A DNA stretch of 64,000 bases from Levilactobacillus bambusae (GTDB taxonomy: Bacteria; Bacillota; Bacilli; Lactobacillales; Lactobacillaceae), in the NCBI RefSeq assembly GCF_003124125.1, contig NZ_QCXQ01000002.1:266747-330746 (forward strand), read 5' to 3'. Positions 5,931 to 49,848 of the stretch are shown here, in pieces. Under the pieces are notes generated by a model. It was not told the origin of the DNA. It saw only the letters and a list, made by a program, of their open reading frames with translations, and searched no databases. Numbering within the stretch: position 1 is the first letter of the stretch; each line of letters starts with the position of its first letter. Position numbers and translations under genes: made by a program.

Positions 5931-5966
5931 GAAAAAAACCCTCACAACTAAGTTGTGAGGGTTTTG
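5931..5966. terminator. Bidirectional terminator between the 47-residue gene and cspA
   Basis: CCCTCACAAC pairs with GTTGTGAGGG across a three-base loop. It is flanked by A residues on the left and T residues on the right, so it can terminate both converging genes. Confidence 0.9.
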
Positions 5967-5979
5967 TTAAAGGTTATAA

Positions 5980-6186
5980 TTAGTCTTCAACAACTGAAAC
6001 GTTAGCAGCTTGTGGGCCACGATCGCCGTCTTCAACATCAAGAGAAACCTTTTGGCCTTCTTCAAGAGTCTTGAAGCCGTCAGCGTTGATAGCTGAGAAG
6101 TGAACGAAAACATCGCTGCCGTTGTCTAAAGTGATAAAACCGTAACCCTTGTCAGCGTTGAACCATTTAACAGTACCTTGTTCCAT
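5980..6186 (-). CDS. cspA: Cold-shock protein, CspA family
   Basis: A 68-residue single cold-shock domain that binds single-stranded RNA or DNA and acts as an RNA chaperone. It carries both nucleic-acid-binding motifs: KGYGFITL (RNP-1) and DVFVHFSAI (RNP-2), and begins [10 protein letters not shown] like most family members. The start at 6186 is chosen because GGAGG lies ten bases upstream; a possible earlier in-frame start is not needed. About 250 bases of AT-rich sequence precede it, consistent with the long 5' leader usual for cold-shock genes, but I could not fix its promoter. Confidence 0.95.
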
Positions 6187-6467
6187 AAGTGAAACCTCCG
6201 TGCGCATAGCGCAATAATATATTTTGCATTTGAAGCTGGGATTAAAAAGGAATCACTTCTTATGAGAACTTGACACCCTTAAACCTTCCGAACTATCAAA
6301 ACACTAAACATAGTTTAACAGTAAGTAATTGGAATATCAATCAAGAACTCCTGAAAATCCCAATTTTTTTGAGAATTCGATTGCCAATGTCAAGCCCTGA
6401 AAGCGATTTGCTCGGTTAATAAAATAATAAATTTTAAATAATAGTTTTTTTAATCTTGTTGTGAACC

Positions 6468-24391: not shown

Positions 24392-24594
24392 ACTGTCATC
24401 CCCCATTTAACTGAATGGTCTCATTATACGTTCTTTTCCTCCCCTACGACAAGAAGAACACGTAACCTGTCAGGGAAATAAAAGTGATTACTTGTTCCCG
24501 GTTCATAAACTGATAAAATAAGGAGTTACAGGAGAAATTGTTCTTCTCTCACTCAAACAATAACTAATAATAAATTGCACTGGAGTTGCTAAGA

Positions 24595-25464
24595 TTGAAC
24601 GTTGCCATTGTTACGGACAGCGTGAGTTATGTTTCGCCCGAAGAAGTCGCCAAATATAACATTCACGTTGTCCCCGTCACCATTATCTTTAACGGCCGCC
24701 CCTATAAAGAAGGCGTCGATATGACGACCGAGGAATTTTACCACAAGCTCAAAACCGAACGGGAACTGCCTAGTACCGCTCAGGTGTCCATCGGCGAGAT
24801 TACGGCTGAATATGACAAACTCGCTGCCGAAGGATACGATACCGTCATTAGTATTCACCTGTCGAGCGGTATCACCAGTTTTCTCCCGAACTTAGAGGCC
24901 TACCTTCCCAATATCACTAATATTAAGGTCATTCCCTTCGATTCCAAAATTGCCGCAATGGGTGAAGGAATGATGGTTCGGTTGGCCGCTCGAATGGCCA
25001 TGGATGGTCGCTCTGCTGATGACATTATGATGGCCTTGAACCGGTTAAAAGCTACCATGGATGAATACTTCGTCGTGGACGACCTTTCCCACCTCGTTCG
25101 GACCGGCCGGTTATCAAACGCCTCCGGCTTCATGGGGAACCTTCTCCGAATCAAACCCATCCTAACCTTCAACGAAGCCGGCCAAATTATCGCCATTGAT
25201 AAGGAACACACCATGAAGCGAGCGTTTGCTAAAATTAAACGCGGGTTTGCGGAAAAAATTGCGAACGTTGATTACCCGGTCAGGGCAGTGGTGATCGATG
25301 CCAATAACCCTAAGCTATCCGCAGATTGGATTACCGAGCTTAAGCAGGAATTTCCCCAAGTGACGTTCGAAACGAGTTTTATTGGTCCCGTTGTCGGTGT
25401 CCATACCGGTGAAAAAACCATGGCGCTGCTGTGGTCCGAAGACTTTGAAAGTTTAAGGCATTAA
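24595..25464 (+). CDS. DegV family (FakB-like) fatty-acid-binding protein
   Basis: A 289-residue DegV protein. Members bind a fatty acid and, as FakB, present it to the kinase FakA for phosphorylation and entry into phospholipid synthesis. Seen are VAIVTDSVSYVSPEEV with the ligand-contacting Ser/Thr, STAQVSIGEI near residue 60, SIHLSSGITS, and the YFVVDDLSHLVRTGRLSNA motif near residue 165. The start is a TTG at 24595 with GGAG nine bases upstream; there is no good ATG. A large structured repeat begins 22 bases after its stop. Confidence 0.93.
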   Translation: MNVAIVTDSVSYVSPEEVAKYNIHVVPVTIIFNGRPYKEGVDMTTEEFYHKLKTERELPSTAQVSIGEITAEYDKLAAEGYDTVISIHLSSGITSFLPNLEAYLPNITNIKVIPFDSKIAAMGEGMMVRLAARMAMDGRSADDIMMALNRLKATMDEYFVVDDLSHLVRTGRLSNASGFMGNLLRIKPILTFNEAGQIIAIDKEHTMKRAFAKIKRGFAEKIANVDYPVRAVVIDANNPKLSADWITELKQEFPQVTFETSFIGPVVGVHTGEKTMALLWSEDFESLRH

Positions 25465-25486
25465 CTAGGCAAGGCAGGGACATAGG

Positions 25487-25907
25487 ACGTTTAGATCATG
25501 CTAAATAGGGCAAAGGACCAGGTTCGATTGCATTTTGATCGGATTTGGTCCTTTGCCCTATTTGGTTGTGGTCTGTCTTTAGTCGGGCTCCGCTTCTCAA
25601 CTTTCTGCGGTTAACCAAGCTCACAAATAATACTAAAACCCAGTATTTTTTGTGAGCTCCGTTAATCCTCAAAAGTAAGCGAGAATCTCCACACCCTTTT
25701 AGTCGGGTTCCATCGCTCAGATCTCTGCGTTTAACCAGGTCATCGAATAATGCCCAAGATCAGCATTTTTCGATGACCCCGTTAAGCCTCAAGATCTACC
25801 GAGTGAATTCCTCACCCTATCCCGTAACTACAGGTCCGAAAGCATCCTGTTAAGGATGAAGAGCTTTCGGGCCATGCGGCAAGAGTCATATTTTCTAAGC
25901 GAAGCGG
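25487..25907 (+). repeat. Compound structured repeat, copy B (largest)
   Basis: This 421-base gene-free block has four parts. Module 1 (25487-25563) starts ACGTTTAG and has a perfect 18-pair stem: 25503-25520 with 25546-25563. Two tandem module-2 units follow, B1 25578-25697 and B2 25698-25818. Each starts TTTAGTCGGG, ends CACCCT and folds into nested helices; the main helix is 25619-25627 with 25649-25657 in B1 and 25739-25747 with 25769-25777 in B2. Module 3 (25824-25907) carries a CGAAAGC..GCTTTCG-type hairpin and ends AGCGAAGCGG. Stem sequences differ between units while pairing is kept. It fills most of the space between degV and sbcC. Confidence 0.88.
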
Positions 25908-25948
25908 TCCAAATGTCTCAAGGCCTCATTTAAGCGTCATTAACACCC

Positions 25949-28900
25949 TTAAAATTCCGTTTGAATCGTCACGCGGCTGCGGCCGTCGCCATCCGAGATG
26001 ACCTGAAGTTGGGTAGGGACCTGATCTTGCAGTTCACTGACGTGGCTAATAATTCCAATCATCCGGTGCTGGCCCTCCACCGTTTCAAGGGAGTGCAAGG
26101 CGGTATTTAGCGCATCTTGGTCAAGCGAACCAAATCCCTCATCGATGAACAGAGCTTCAACGTCAATCGATCCCGTCTCAGCCTGAATGACTTCACCCAG
26201 TGCTAACGCCAAGGCCAGCGCCGCAATAAAACTTTCGCCGCCGGATAAAGTGTGAACGCTCCGGGTTTCACCAACGTTATCATCATAAACGTTAATTTCT
26301 AACCCCGCCCGTTTCTTGGATGAGGCTTCGCCAGTATCTAAGTCAAACTGATACCGGCCGTTGGTCAGCTTTAACAGCTGATCGTTGGCCGCCACTAAAA
26401 TTCGTTGCAGGTAGGTTTGAAGAACGTAGCGTTCTAAGCCAAGCTTACTGTAATCACTATTCCCATTCATCACATCCGCTAATTCGCCTAACTCCCGTTG
26501 GTGCGTCAGCTCCTCTTCCTGCCGATTCATCCCGGCTACAATTCGATTCAACCGCCGTTCATTTTGGGTGATCTGCATTTTAAGGTCACCCTCTTCCGCC
26601 CTCAACTGGGTCAGTTCGGTATCGGCTGCCTGCCGGGCCAGCTTAGTGGCTTCCCCATCGGGCCGCTGCCGATCCGTTAACTGCTGGTTCAGCTCCGTTA
26701 ACCGATTCTGAACTTCGGTGCAGTGCTGCTGGTAGGCCGTCACCGCCTGTCTCAGCTCGGCTAACCGGTCAAGCTGTTCGTATCCCGTCACGAACTGATC
26801 GTGGGCCGCCTCATCGGTGACGTTAAAGGTGGCAACCACGGCTGCATGCAGTTGGTTTCTTAAGTCATCGGCCTTTTTCTGGTTATCCGTTAACTGGTTC
26901 TGCGTTAGTTTGATTTGGGATGTCAGCTCGGTTAATTGCATTTGTAGTTTATTTCCCTGCTCCGTGACAGACTCTAACTTGGCATCATGGCCAGCTACTA
27001 CCGCCTTTAACCGTTGAATTTCCACCTGTAAATCACCGGCAGTTTGAAACTCAGCTGGCAGTTTTTCCTGGACGGTTGTTAGGGTCGCTTGAGTGGCGGA
27101 TTGCAACTGTTCGGCTTTTTGGAGTTGTTCTTGCAGCTGATTAATGGTCGTTGTCAATTCAGTAACCTTCACCTGCAACTGCTGTTTCACCTGACGATCT
27201 TGGTCTAACTGATCCAGCTGTTGGGTAAGGTGACTCAACGTTGCTTGAACCTGATTTTGCTCCTCCGTTAGTCGCTTGATCACAAGTTCAGGGGCAACCG
27301 ACTCCAAAGTCACCATCGTTAACTGGTCCGCCAATTGGTCCTGATCACTGGTTAACTTGGTTTGGATCTGTTGGCACTGCGCCTGGTAATCTTGAAGCTG
27401 AGCCTTCGCCGTTGTCAACAACTGGTTAGCCTGATCGCTAGTTTGACGGGCCACTTTCACTTCGGCCTCAGTAACGGACTGAACCGTTGTTACCGCTGGG
27501 TAAGGATGTTCCGTTGATCCGCATACGGGACACGGTGTCCCTGGAGCTAACTGTTGGCTTAATACGGCAATCTGACTTTGAATCCAGCGCTGATTGATCG
27601 CTTCAAATGCTTGGTTAGCCGCTTGGAATTGCTCATCTGCTTGATCGACTTCGACCTGTTTTTGCTGAACCAGTAACGTTAGCTGCTGCTGGTTTTTTTT
27701 CTGCTCCTGAACCAGCATGGCCTGGTCCATTAACCGTTCTAACTGGTGCTGGCGAGTCACAGTTACCGTTTGATCGTGGTGCAGTTGATCGCTTTGATCC
27801 AGCCGAGCTTGAACCTTAACCGATTGATTCTGAACGGCTTGCTGCTCATCTTGGCACGCTTTAAGGTTTTTAGTCAGCGTTTCAACGCGTTGCCGCTGAC
27901 TTTTCAATTCCTGATTCAATTCATCAACCCGCTGATAAGACGCAACCAGTGACTCTAATCTCACCCGGTTAGCCGTTGTCTGATCTATTTGCGGCTGCTG
28001 GTCCGTTAGTTCACGCCGCTGATTTCGCAGTTGCAGCAACTCGGGTTCGAGTTGCCGTTTTGTCTGATCCATCTGTCGTAACTGCTGCTTCATCTGGTCC
28101 ATATCGTCCGTTAACTGCACTAACTGGGTGTATTCTGGCGCCCGTTGCTGAATCCAATCTAGCTGATCCACTAACCGCTGCCGTTTTTTCATCTGATCGG
28201 CCTGATCGGTCAATTCTGCTAATTGCCGCGTTTGCTGATCCCGCTGATCAAACATTCGGGTCGTCTGCAATTCCCTTTCGGTCTGCTGAATCAGTTGGTT
28301 AACTCGTTGCTGGACCTGAATAATTTTCTGATCGAGCGTTGCCTGCTGGCCCTTCCAATCGGTTTGCTGCTGGTTAGCCAGTTCTATCAGTTCGCTGGTG
28401 GTTTTCCCAACCGTTCCGGTGTCAATCGCCTGCTGGTTAGGTTCCGTCCAAATCAAGTCACTGACATCTCGTTGGATCGCCGTCTGTTGATCCCGTAATG
28501 CTTGATTGGCCTGTTTTTGGGCCGTGCGCAATTGTTCCGCCCAGTCCACGTAAAGCTGCGTATGAAAAAGCTGCCGCAAAATGGCCGCCTTATCATCACT
28601 CGGCGCCACTAAAAACTGCCTGAATTTACCCTGGGGCAATAACACGATCTGTGAAAACTGGTTCGCATTCATCTTTAGTAGCTCAAGAATCATGTCATCC
28701 GCCTGTTTTTTTCGGGTGACCTGATCGACTTCGTGCCCTTCCACATCAAAGACCGTCAGTTCAACACTCGCCCCCTTTTCGGTCACCCCGCCGCCCCGTT
28801 TAGTGTGCAGCTGCTTGGGCTGACGGATAACTTGGTAGTGACGGTGCCGGTGTTCAAACTCAAACGCCACCTGCGTATAATCATCGGGGGATGCAAAATC

Positions 28901-29101
28901 TGATCGCATGCTCGTCGCGTCCCGTTCCTGGCCGGAAGTTTGGTCAAACAGGGCGTAACTCATACCATCAAAAATGGTTGTCTTCCCACTCCCCGTCTTC
29001 CCGCTGATCAAAAATAGCGGCGCATCCGCCAGTTTGGTGAAATCAATCTCAGCGTGTTCATAGGGTCCAAACCAGTCTAAGGTTAATTTAATAGGTCGCA
29101 T
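25949..29101 (-). CDS. sbcC: Nuclease SbcCD subunit C
   Basis: A 1050-residue SMC-like ATPase of the SbcCD nuclease, which opens hairpins and processes double-strand breaks. It has the N-terminal Walker A ISGKTGSGKTTIFDG, two very long Gln-rich coiled-coil arms, the zinc hook CPVC in the middle, and the C-terminal signature LSGGESF with Walker B FIDEGFGSLD. I place the start at ATG 29101 (MRPIKLTLDWFGPYEHA), which overlaps sbcD by 14 bases; a longer frame upstream has no family similarity. Hairpin-cutting activity is notable since large hairpin repeats lie next to it. Confidence 0.95.
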   Translation of the reverse strand: MRPIKLTLDWFGPYEHAEIDFTKLADAPLFLISGKTGSGKTTIFDGMSYALFDQTSGQERDATSMRSDFASPDDYTQVAFEFEHRHRHYQVIRQPKQLHTKRGGGVTEKGASVELTVFDVEGHEVDQVTRKKQADDMILELLKMNANQFSQIVLLPQGKFRQFLVAPSDDKAAILRQLFHTQLYVDWAEQLRTAQKQANQALRDQQTAIQRDVSDLIWTEPNQQAIDTGTVGKTTSELIELANQQQTDWKGQQATLDQKIIQVQQRVNQLIQQTERELQTTRMFDQRDQQTRQLAELTDQADQMKKRQRLVDQLDWIQQRAPEYTQLVQLTDDMDQMKQQLRQMDQTKRQLEPELLQLRNQRRELTDQQPQIDQTTANRVRLESLVASYQRVDELNQELKSQRQRVETLTKNLKACQDEQQAVQNQSVKVQARLDQSDQLHHDQTVTVTRQHQLERLMDQAMLVQEQKKNQQQLTLLVQQKQVEVDQADEQFQAANQAFEAINQRWIQSQIAVLSQQLAPGTPCPVCGSTEHPYPAVTTVQSVTEAEVKVARQTSDQANQLLTTAKAQLQDYQAQCQQIQTKLTSDQDQLADQLTMVTLESVAPELVIKRLTEEQNQVQATLSHLTQQLDQLDQDRQVKQQLQVKVTELTTTINQLQEQLQKAEQLQSATQATLTTVQEKLPAEFQTAGDLQVEIQRLKAVVAGHDAKLESVTEQGNKLQMQLTELTSQIKLTQNQLTDNQKKADDLRNQLHAAVVATFNVTDEAAHDQFVTGYEQLDRLAELRQAVTAYQQHCTEVQNRLTELNQQLTDRQRPDGEATKLARQAADTELTQLRAEEGDLKMQITQNERRLNRIVAGMNRQEEELTHQRELGELADVMNGNSDYSKLGLERYVLQTYLQRILVAANDQLLKLTNGRYQFDLDTGEASSKKRAGLEINVYDDNVGETRSVHTLSGGESFIAALALALALGEVIQAETGSIDVEALFIDEGFGSLDQDALNTALHSLETVEGQHRMIGIISHVSELQDQVPTQLQVISDGDGRSRVTIQTEF

Positions 29102-30227
29102 TACCAAGTTCCCCTTCCGCTTTAACGAGGGCACTGGCCGCCCAGTCCTTTTGATTAACCGATAGTTTTTCGCCCGTGACTTGGTGGTAAAAATCAGACA
29201 ACAACTCCGTTGGGTTCTGTTTGATTTGCTCAACGGTCTGACTTGGAGTCGTTAACTGCCTGGGATTTACCCGGGTCAGCTCAATAATTTGTGGAAACCG
29301 GCGCTTCAAATCTTCCATGACGTTCGGGATTGGTGCCGAATCCGTTAGCTGAATGGCCACGTAATCCGTTGGCCGGACGTTAAACGTTTGGTTTGGATCC
29401 ATTAGTTGGTCGTAACTATTCTTTAAAATGACAAGATCGTGCAGGGGCGTTATCGCCCGAAAAGTGACCGTCACTGGATTGGTTTCCGTATCCACAATCC
29501 AGCATCCCTTAACGTCTTCGGCCTCACTAGTCGAAAATTTCAGGGGAGACCCACTGTATTTAACCGTTGCTTCATTCAGGGCCTCTTTTCGGTGCAGATG
29601 CCCCAGTGCAACGTAGTCAAACGCTGATAACTGATCAACCGGAATGGCGTTCAATCCCCCCACCTCAACCAAGGTTTCAGAATCCGTGTGAGTACTCCCC
29701 GCCGCAAAAAAGTGTGCCACCAAAACGTGGCGTTTGTCCGCATCAAACCGCTGGGTCATTTCACTTAAGATGCTTGTCATTCCATCCTGGACCGTCCGAA
29801 TGCTTTCATCATGAAAGGTTTCGCGAACTTGATGGGGTTCAAAATAGGGCAGCAAAAAGAACTGGGTATTCCCCATAACAACGGGTGTTAAACTCTGCTT
29901 TATGGTTGTATTCAGGTAAAAATCGGTCGCCGAAAACCATTCCTGGCCCGTACTTAACCGGGTGGCACTATCATGATTTCCGCTAATTGCTAAGACGGGC
30001 ATTTTCAGTTGTCGATTCAAATCGACTAGCATGCCGTTTAAACAATTGACGGCGTCCTCGCTGGGAACCTTACGATCGTATAGATCCCCAGCAATGACCA
30101 TTGCGTCCACGTTTTCTTCCTGGGCAATTTGTCGTAATTGTTGGTAAGCATCCTGCTGTTCCTCCAGCAGGCTGAACCCGTGAAGCTGTTTACCGATATG
30201 CCAATCGGCTGTATGTAAAAACCGCAC
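29088..30227 (-). CDS. sbcD: Nuclease SbcCD subunit D
   Basis: A 379-residue Mre11-type phosphoesterase, the nuclease subunit of SbcCD. Metal-binding motifs are in order: HTADWHIGK at residues 5-13, GDLYDRKVPSEDA near 50, GNHDSATRLS near 85, VAHFFAAG, and LGHLHRKEAL near 210. The start is a GTG at 30227 with AAGGGAG upstream. It overlaps sbcC, the usual gene order. Confidence 0.95.
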   Translation of the reverse strand: MRFLHTADWHIGKQLHGFSLLEEQQDAYQQLRQIAQEENVDAMVIAGDLYDRKVPSEDAVNCLNGMLVDLNRQLKMPVLAISGNHDSATRLSTGQEWFSATDFYLNTTIKQSLTPVVMGNTQFFLLPYFEPHQVRETFHDESIRTVQDGMTSILSEMTQRFDADKRHVLVAHFFAAGSTHTDSETLVEVGGLNAIPVDQLSAFDYVALGHLHRKEALNEATVKYSGSPLKFSTSEAEDVKGCWIVDTETNPVTVTFRAITPLHDLVILKNSYDQLMDPNQTFNVRPTDYVAIQLTDSAPIPNVMEDLKRRFPQIIELTRVNPRQLTTPSQTVEQIKQNPTELLSDFYHQVTGEKLSVNQKDWAASALVKAEGELGNATY

Positions 30228-49670: not shown

Positions 49671-49848
49671 TTGACACCCCGACCGTTTCCACTTAAAATG
49701 AGCTTAACTAAATATGACCTTTAACTTAGTCCCGTGAGGCTAACAAGGTACGATGATAATGCAGCCGTCATACACACCGGCTAGTTTTGACTACGATTGG
49801 ACATTAACTTCGACCTCTTACCTTTACGGGCAAGGGGTCGTTTTTTTA
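49671..49848 (+). promoter_or_regulatory. Promoter and PyrR attenuator of the uracil permease gene
   Basis: TTGACA (49671-49676), 17 bases, TAAAAT (49694-49699). The leader contains AGTCCCGTGAGGCT (49728-49741), a match to the PyrR-binding loop, set in an ACCTT/AAGGT-closed hairpin. It ends with a terminator, CGACCTCTT pairing with AAGGGGTCG, followed by T7 (49811-49847). In the known system PyrR with UMP favours the terminator. Confidence 0.88.

What the first reader, a model, noticed from the sequence alone, without database searches (positions are those of the whole stretch)
25578..25818. Two tandem 120-bp units with compensatory changes in nested helices
Units 25578-25697 and 25698-25818 align end to end (TTTAGTCGGG ... 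CACCCT) with the same helix positions. The main helix is GCTCACAAA/TTTGTGAGC in the first and GTCATCGAA/TTCGATGAC in the second, both enclosing 21 bases. The inner helix AATACT/AGTATT becomes AATGC/GCATT. The flanking helix ACTTT/AAAGT becomes AGATCT/AGATCT. GGTTAAC with GTTAATCC becomes GTTTAAC with GTTAAGC. Such double changes are the classic mark of a functional RNA or of a DNA element handled as single strand.
Basis: seen in the sequence. Interest (0 to 1): 0.85.

Follow-up and report, generated by a model that had tools for sequence, protein, structure and literature searches.

The report
Repeated hairpins docked at stop codons
The two tandem units belong to a family of about 120-nucleotide hairpins, present in tens of copies in some genomes of lactobacilli and their relatives, whose shape is kept while the letters change and which often begin right at the stop codon of a gene, so they are probably structured ends of messenger RNAs.

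Summary
Confirmed, and larger than described. The two units are copies of a dispersed tandem hairpin (module B). A covariance search counts 70 units in the window's genome, finds the fold in 94 of 395 Lactobacillales genomes, and in none of 397 others drawn across the phylum. Across 76 units 93.2% of cells pair and 35 of 40 pairs show two-sided changes, far above slid controls. G-U exceeds A-C mispairs 172 to 53 on the MINUS strand, so that is the folding strand. On it, 45 of 77 arrays from relatives begin within -12..+3 nt of a gene's stop codon, against 0 of 77 at the mirror end. Best reading: a REP/BOX-like, stop-codon-docked 3'-UTR RNA hairpin, spread by duplication and gene conversion, acting in cis on translation termination or mRNA 3'-end decay. 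Structure, strand and position are shown; function and mode of spread are inferred. A strand-specific parasitic element is the main rival. In the window itself B is not docked: module C lies between it and sbcC. No Rfam match; ten paper searches listed no description.

The parts
25578..25697 (-). Module B, unit 1 (the unit farther from sbcC); closed hairpin of helices P0-P5
   Evidence: cmsearch R2 hit 25578-25698, minus strand, 114.3 bits, E 3.1e-34; alignments A2 and A5
25698..25818 (-). Module B, unit 2 (the unit nearer sbcC)
   Evidence: listed as G000:C10:292444-292565, 94.0 bits, E 3.4e-26. The window-only search printed only unit 1, perhaps because the two hits overlap by one base
25472..25577 (+). 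Module A: long terminator-like hairpin (HMM core 25477-25571) starting about 8-13 nt after the DegV-family gene's stop; 45 copies in fetched loci of this genome; wobble pattern places its fold on the + strand
   Evidence: G-T 164 against A-C 4 on + in 34 rows; terminator-like pattern 25510-25556, 1 found against 0.6 expected by chance
25819..25925 (+). Module C (HMM core 25820-25919): hairpin GGTCCGAAAGC/GCTTTCGG(G/A)CC and a conserved tail; 24 copies in fetched loci; closes composites A-(B)0-4-C
   Evidence: G-T 38 against A-C 5 on + in 19 rows
24586..25464 (+). DegV-family gene; its stop codon is just before module A
   Evidence: TIGR00762 E 5.1e-87, PF02645 E 2.7e-77
25949..29233 (-). sbcC-like gene, convergent; a transcript running past its stop would carry C antisense, then B unit 2, B unit 1, then A antisense
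   Evidence: best SbcC match NF041751 E 2e-139, under its curated cut-off; PF13558 SbcC_Walker_B

Best explanation
Module B is a dispersed, REP/BOX-like family of about 122-nt RNA hairpins of the Lactobacillales. It is read on the strand of the gene whose stop codon it abuts and forms the first part of that mRNA's 3'-UTR, as one to several tandem hairpins. SHOWN: conserved fold with near-free helix sequence and conserved internal loops; folding strand (minus in the window); docking to stop codons in relatives; range limited to Lactobacillales in the genomes sampled; change in unit number and replacement of units at shared slots. INFERRED: because the hairpin foot lies inside the footprint of a terminating ribosome, the last ribosome melts the base and its release lets it refold, giving a translation-coupled lock on the mRNA 3' end that slows termination and/or blocks 3' exonucleases; tandem units strengthen it. 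Copies arise by duplication and ectopic gene conversion between units, selected to refold. In this window an sbcC transcript would reach B only through module C.
For: Fold: 93.2% of 3030 cells paired, 35 of 40 pairs with two-sided change, covariation 0.835 against at most 0.185 when slid. Strand: G-U 172 against A-C 53 on minus (63 relatives 148:40, 13 own 24:13). Docking: 45 of 77 non-own arrays have a stop codon at -12..+3, none at -30..-13; mirror end 0 of 77. Upstream gene on the same strand in 65 of 75 distinct arrays; between co-directional genes sense 40, antisense 7, two-sided p 1.1e-6. Own genome: in 16 of 26 B elements without C the minus-strand gene ends 1-11 nt away. Range: 94 of 395 Lactobacillales genomes, 30 of 80 genera; 0 of 397 others in a phylum draw. 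Turnover.
Against: No expression data. The window's own pair is not docked: C separates it from sbcC. 32 of 77 arrays lack a stop codon in -12..+3. G-T tolerance also fits single-stranded DNA; helix P1 shows no strand preference (G-T 19, A-C 17 on +; my sums) and the own units only a weak one (38 G-T, 64 A-C on +). Upstream genes share no function, and one gene followed across 30 loci does not keep a docked unit, as for a drifting repeat. Between two Pediococcus genomes substitutions in 7 conserved units did not clearly spare pairs: of 36, 13 unpaired, 12 kept, 10 broken, 1 not classed.
Confidence: 0.5

Rival explanations
1. A non-autonomous mobile or parasitic element whose hairpin is recognised on one strand by a transposition enzyme acting in trans. 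Structure is kept for mobility, and docking at stop codons reflects target choice plus removal of harmful insertions; no host function.
For: Near-identical copies within the own genome (95% over 263-266 nt at two places) with no blastn match in 58 other genomes; diverse neighbours; not kept at one orthologous gene; two slots with clear hits in one Pediococcus genome and not the other; composites with 0-4 B and precise-loss scars.
Against: Of 15 proteins encoded between neighbouring arrays 13 match ordinary Pfam families and 2 none; none is a transposase or reverse transcriptase. The Y1 transposase family is absent, at E 1e-10, from the window's genome and from the 9 unit-carrying genomes of the Pediococcus group in the draw, and only weakly associated over 397 genomes (50 of 129 against 75 of 268, p 0.04). 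Other transposase families were not searched. Removal of bad insertions does not explain stop codons at -12..+3 with none at -13..-30.
Confidence: 0.3
2. The arrays are sources of 3'-UTR-derived small RNAs that act in trans or bind a protein through the conserved internal loops.
For: Conserved loops GGA/GGA and YGA/GSAR on the minus strand (read); tandem units of constant length.
Against: No shared target sequence is visible in the near-free arms; no transcript data.
Confidence: 0.1
3. A DNA-level element between convergent genes (gyrase site, supercoil sink or cruciform), as proposed for REP/BIME (recalled).
For: 34 of 57 own elements lie between convergent genes and only 1 between divergent ones; an inverted hairpin tip at L030:1650-1770 shows DNA-level rearrangement of the palindrome.
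Against: Strand asymmetry of wobble pairs and sense bias; among 75 distinct arrays of relatives 47 lie between co-directional genes.
Confidence: 0.05
4. The compensatory changes come from quasi-palindrome template switching that copies one arm onto the other, without selection on structure.
For: The process is established for imperfect palindromes (recalled); tip inversion in L030 and internally deleted units in L035 and L044.
Against: It would also erase bulges and internal loops, yet the bulged base and loop motifs are conserved across genera while helices vary; it predicts neither strand bias nor docking.
Confidence: 0.03

Closest known systems
BOX elements of Streptococcus pneumoniae (boxA-boxBn-boxC)
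   Same: Modular composite with a variable tandem array of a middle unit; foldable as RNA; over-represented between convergent genes (PMC3049150, passages seen)
   Different: Unit here about 122 nt; one fold conserved across families of an order; module B has a folding strand and docks at stop codons, neither of which the passages I saw describe for BOX. Sequences were not compared
REP/BIME palindromes of enterobacteria
   Same: Dispersed palindromes clustering at 3' ends of genes (passage in PMC1590033); an effect on translation when close to a stop codon is recalled (Liang, Rudd and Deutscher 2015; nothing seen)
   Different: Longer, multi-helix with conserved internal loops; tied to one strand; no Y1 (RAYT-like) gene in the host genome
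Efa-1/EFAR of Enterococcus faecalis
   Same: Lactobacillales intergenic structured repeat; Efa-1 163 bp, 65 copies in PMC2267715 (passages); modular EFAR is recalled (Venditti 2007; nothing seen)
   Different: Efa-1 is described as a pair of adjacent hairpins; module B is a single hairpin. Sequences were not compared
Rho-independent terminators near stop codons in low-GC firmicutes
   Same: Stem-loops close after stop codons (PMC1590033, passages)
   Different: No terminator-like pattern in B on either strand; only module A matches

Membership tests
Known Rfam RNA family | Match at the curated gathering score | tested here: not met
   No match over 25578-25818 among 4227 families; with E-value up to 1 only three sub-threshold miRNA models, on module A
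BOX element | Modular A-Bn-C with variable number of tandem B | tested here: met
   Own genome: where modules adjoin the order is A-(B)0-4-C
BOX element | Sequence relatedness to pneumococcal boxA/B/C | not tested
   No BOX sequence was fetched; nothing is claimed
REP/BIME with RAYT | Y1 (RAYT-like) transposase in the genome | tested here: not met
   PF01797: 0 matches at E 1e-10 in the window's genome, 99.7% complete
REP/BIME | Dispersed palindromes at 3' ends of genes | tested here: met
Efa-1/EFAR | Pair of adjacent stem-loops, 163 bp (Efa-1) | tested here: not met
   Module B is one closed hairpin of about 122 nt; direct sequence comparison not done
Intrinsic terminator | GC-rich hairpin followed by a U-tract | tested here: not met
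   Scan of 25440-25980 finds one site only, in module A on +
MITE with terminal inverted repeats and target-site duplication | Clean empty site with duplication | tested here: inconclusive
   Two presence/absence sites between two Pediococcus genomes have diverged flanks; no clean junction
Functional structured RNA | Transcript and structure shown by experiment | not testable with these tools
   No transcript or probing data

The most novel reading that the evidence does not exclude
Lactobacillales carry a general 3'-end module for mRNAs: a structured RNA docked on the stop codon, recognised through its conserved loops by a dedicated factor or by the terminating ribosome, and exchanged between genes as a cassette so that the slot is kept while the sequence turns over. 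With up to about 100 units in a genome (101 in G206) it would form a distributed control of termination or mRNA lifetime.
Probability: 0.28. Interest if true: 0.9.

Novelty: new variant of a known kind. Interest (0 to 1): 0.74.

Why it matters
Small dispersed palindromes are often regarded as parasites. Here one family gives three independent signs of single-strand function: deep covariation, strand-biased wobble pairs, and docking to the stop codon with an empty mirror end. If the cis effect is real, tens of genes in some genomes of lactic acid bacteria share an unrecognised 3'-end control, and the open question whether such repeats work at the mRNA end can be tested by arm swaps in a laboratory strain.

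Tried and rejected
Plasmid and phage collections (blastn) gave no match, and one viral-contig pattern scan gave none. DNA search in 58 other genomes found nothing; relatives appeared only with a covariance model. My first structural model forced a conserved G.T pair (columns 35-94 of A2); the cross-genus alignment showed a bulged base instead. On own units alone the wobble test was weak (38 G-T against 64 A-C on +). Conserved association with particular genes was tested with one short-chain dehydrogenase gene: of 30 loci, units were found in 4 (own L151, L157, L160, L161), directly at that gene's 3' end only in the own genome. The window's slot in relatives: in 9 other loci of the genus, each about 3 kb, no sbcC match was seen beside the DegV gene, and the one unit found (L142) lies on the other side of that gene. 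A Y1 transposase as general mobiliser: not supported. The ortholog-pair substitution test was inconclusive. Ten paper searches listed no paper whose title or abstract start describes this family; one search showed 8 of 44 hits and one search showed 12 of 24, and most subscription papers are not in that library.

Rows dropped before counts: antiparallel shadow hits of the palindrome; own-genome arrays, units under 105 nt, loci that repeat others (L101, L105, L110, L111, L129) and also L099 and L103 of a genome already represented; arrays at locus edges (5); six identical arrays; elements without ORFs on both sides. still holds four repeated arrays, so I cite instead. One search holds 77 distinct arrays from 62 loci, so several come from one genome. 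ORFs were called by simple length rules, not by a gene finder. Family-, order- and phylum-wide model searches scored only 9 candidates a genome with stricter filters.

Full report
OBSERVATION. They are not a lone pair. A DNA search of the window's own genome (1.97 Mb, 39 contigs) gives 52 places, some overlapping. nhmmer on 38 fetched loci gives 64 non-overlapping units, 49 of full length, and a covariance search counts 70 (150 of 512 candidates scored). In the 49 own units 93.8% of cells pair and 24 of 38 pairs have two-sided changes, against 36-50% of cells when partners are slid.

ANATOMY. In this genome the unit is the middle module of a composite A-(B)0-4-C. Some loci have A and C with no B, joined as GTCTTATGTCCCG; three places have a scar AGTCGG(G/A)TTCCACAC(C/T)CT where a hairpin is missing. 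B arrays also stand alone beside ordinary terminators. In 55 fetched own loci I count 45 A, 65 B and 24 C. In the window A is 25472-25577, B is 25578-25697 and 25698-25818, and C is 25819-25925, between a DegV-family gene (+) and an sbcC-like gene (-).

RELATIVES. No blastn match was found in 58 other genomes, 35 of them of the same genus. A model of the 49 units (R1) then found the fold in 129 of 397 genomes of the family, own included, 18 of 40 genera. One exact-pattern scan of the genome collection gave 18 stretches, all Pediococcus, Lacticaseibacillus or Paucilactobacillus, and none in viral contigs. G183 has the contig length of Pediococcus acidilactici DSM 20284 scaffold 1, so the family is read as Lactobacillaceae (inference). 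A second model (R2, 76 units) hits 94 of 395 Lactobacillales genomes in 30 of 80 genera, other families included, and, in a phylum-wide draw of 398 genomes at E 1e-5, only the window's own genome. That draw also shows that R2 does not merely catch long hairpins; each genome had 9 candidates scored.

STRUCTURE AND STRAND. On a MAFFT alignment not fitted to the structure (A5, 76 units), 93.2% of cells pair, 35 of 40 pairs show two-sided changes, and the covariation score is 0.835 against at most 0.185 for slid partners. Most pairs of P1, P2 and P4-P5 occur in all four Watson-Crick types. The bulged base in P3 and the internal loops stay. Read on the minus strand, G-U exceeds A-C 172 to 53: 148 to 40 in 63 relatives, 24 to 13 in 13 own units. 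P1 alone shows no bias (G-T 19, A-C 17 on +, my sums), and the 49 own units lean only weakly. So one strand is the folding strand; this fits RNA, but single-stranded DNA also tolerates G-T more than A-C (recalled). In modules A and C the bias is the other way (+ strand: 164 to 4 and 38 to 5), so A and C seem to belong to the plus-strand gene and B to the minus-strand gene.

POSITION. On the folding strand, 65 of 75 distinct arrays in relatives and other families follow a gene on the same strand; between co-directional genes sense exceeds antisense 40 to 7 (which removes the repeats present). In the control that measures both ends alike, 77 arrays outside the own genome were examined: at the 5' end 60 have a same-strand ORF of 100 aa or more ending within -300..+20, and 45 of these have the stop codon at -12..+3, none at -30..-13, 3 beyond +3 and 12 farther upstream; at the mirrored 3' end 24 have such an ORF, none within 30 nt. 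In 17 arrays the unit's first three bases are the stop codon. In the own genome 34 of 57 elements lie between convergent genes and 1 between divergent ones; in 16 of 26 B elements without C the minus-strand gene ends 1-11 nt away, and 10 further B elements have C between. In the window C intervenes and B begins about 130 nt after the sbcC stop codon.

DYNAMICS. Upstream genes are mixed metabolic and housekeeping genes: 56 proteins, the commonest Pfam family in 5. One short-chain dehydrogenase gene does not keep a docked unit across 30 loci. Between two collinear Pediococcus genomes I compared 14 slots; two further slots have clear hits in G183 only, one weak hit in G206 only, and unit number differs at several. 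Over the 14 comparisons the unit nearest the gene averages 0.82 identity, the 120 nt before it 0.86, the 80 nt after it 0.57; at least two of the 14 have unlike upstream DNA and may not be orthologous. At three slots (A51206, A89013, A102793) the gene end is at least 92% identical but the unit is replaced by another of the same architecture (0.66-0.71). I read this as gene conversion or cassette exchange (inference). A test of whether substitutions in conserved units spare pairs was inconclusive. The inverted apical tip at L030:1650-1770 shows that the palindrome also rearranges as DNA.

MECHANISM. The stop codon usually lies some 5-15 nt before the hairpin base, inside the footprint of a terminating ribosome (footprint recalled). 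I therefore favour a cis role at the end of translation or of the mRNA. This is inference; no expression data were available. The main rival is a strand-specific parasitic repeat. I found no enzyme for it: 15 proteins encoded between neighbouring arrays include no transposase or reverse transcriptase (13 have other Pfam families, 2 none), and no Y1 transposase is found in the own genome or in the 9 unit-carrying genomes of the Pediococcus group in the draw. Other transposase families were not searched genome-wide.

KNOWN THINGS. Architecture recalls pneumococcal BOX (passages of PMC3049150); position recalls REP and the stop-proximal stem-loops surveyed in PMC1590033 (passages); Efa-1 of E. 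faecalis is a double hairpin (passages of PMC2267715). A review on RNase R mentions only that REP-containing mRNAs are its targets (passages of PMC12320835). EFAR and the REP-translation work are recalled only. No Rfam family matches. Ten searches of the paper library listed no description of this family.

Noticed in passing
L030:1650-1770: The apical tip of one B unit is inverted relative to the other 48 units of alignment A2, a trace of hairpin- or cruciform-mediated rearrangement.
   Followed up: partly
window 25472-25577 and 25819-25925: Modules A and C are repeat families of their own (45 and 24 copies in fetched loci) with wobble bias on the + strand, opposite to B.
   Followed up: partly
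G000:C10:265058-265075 (in L015), G000:C10:512872-512889, G000:C35:44558-44575: Three scars where a B hairpin is absent between its short terminal direct repeats.
   Followed up: partly
L030 and L044 flanks: Perfect terminator hairpins beside B arrays carry NN at the loop in the assembly, suggesting contig joins at palindromes.
   Followed up: no
window 25949-30227: The window copy lies beside genes for SbcC- and SbcD-like proteins, a nuclease known to cut DNA hairpins (recalled); probably coincidence.
   Followed up: no
window 5932-6377 and 49714-49847: Rfam matches: cspA thermoregulator (-) and PyrR binding site (+).
   Followed up: no
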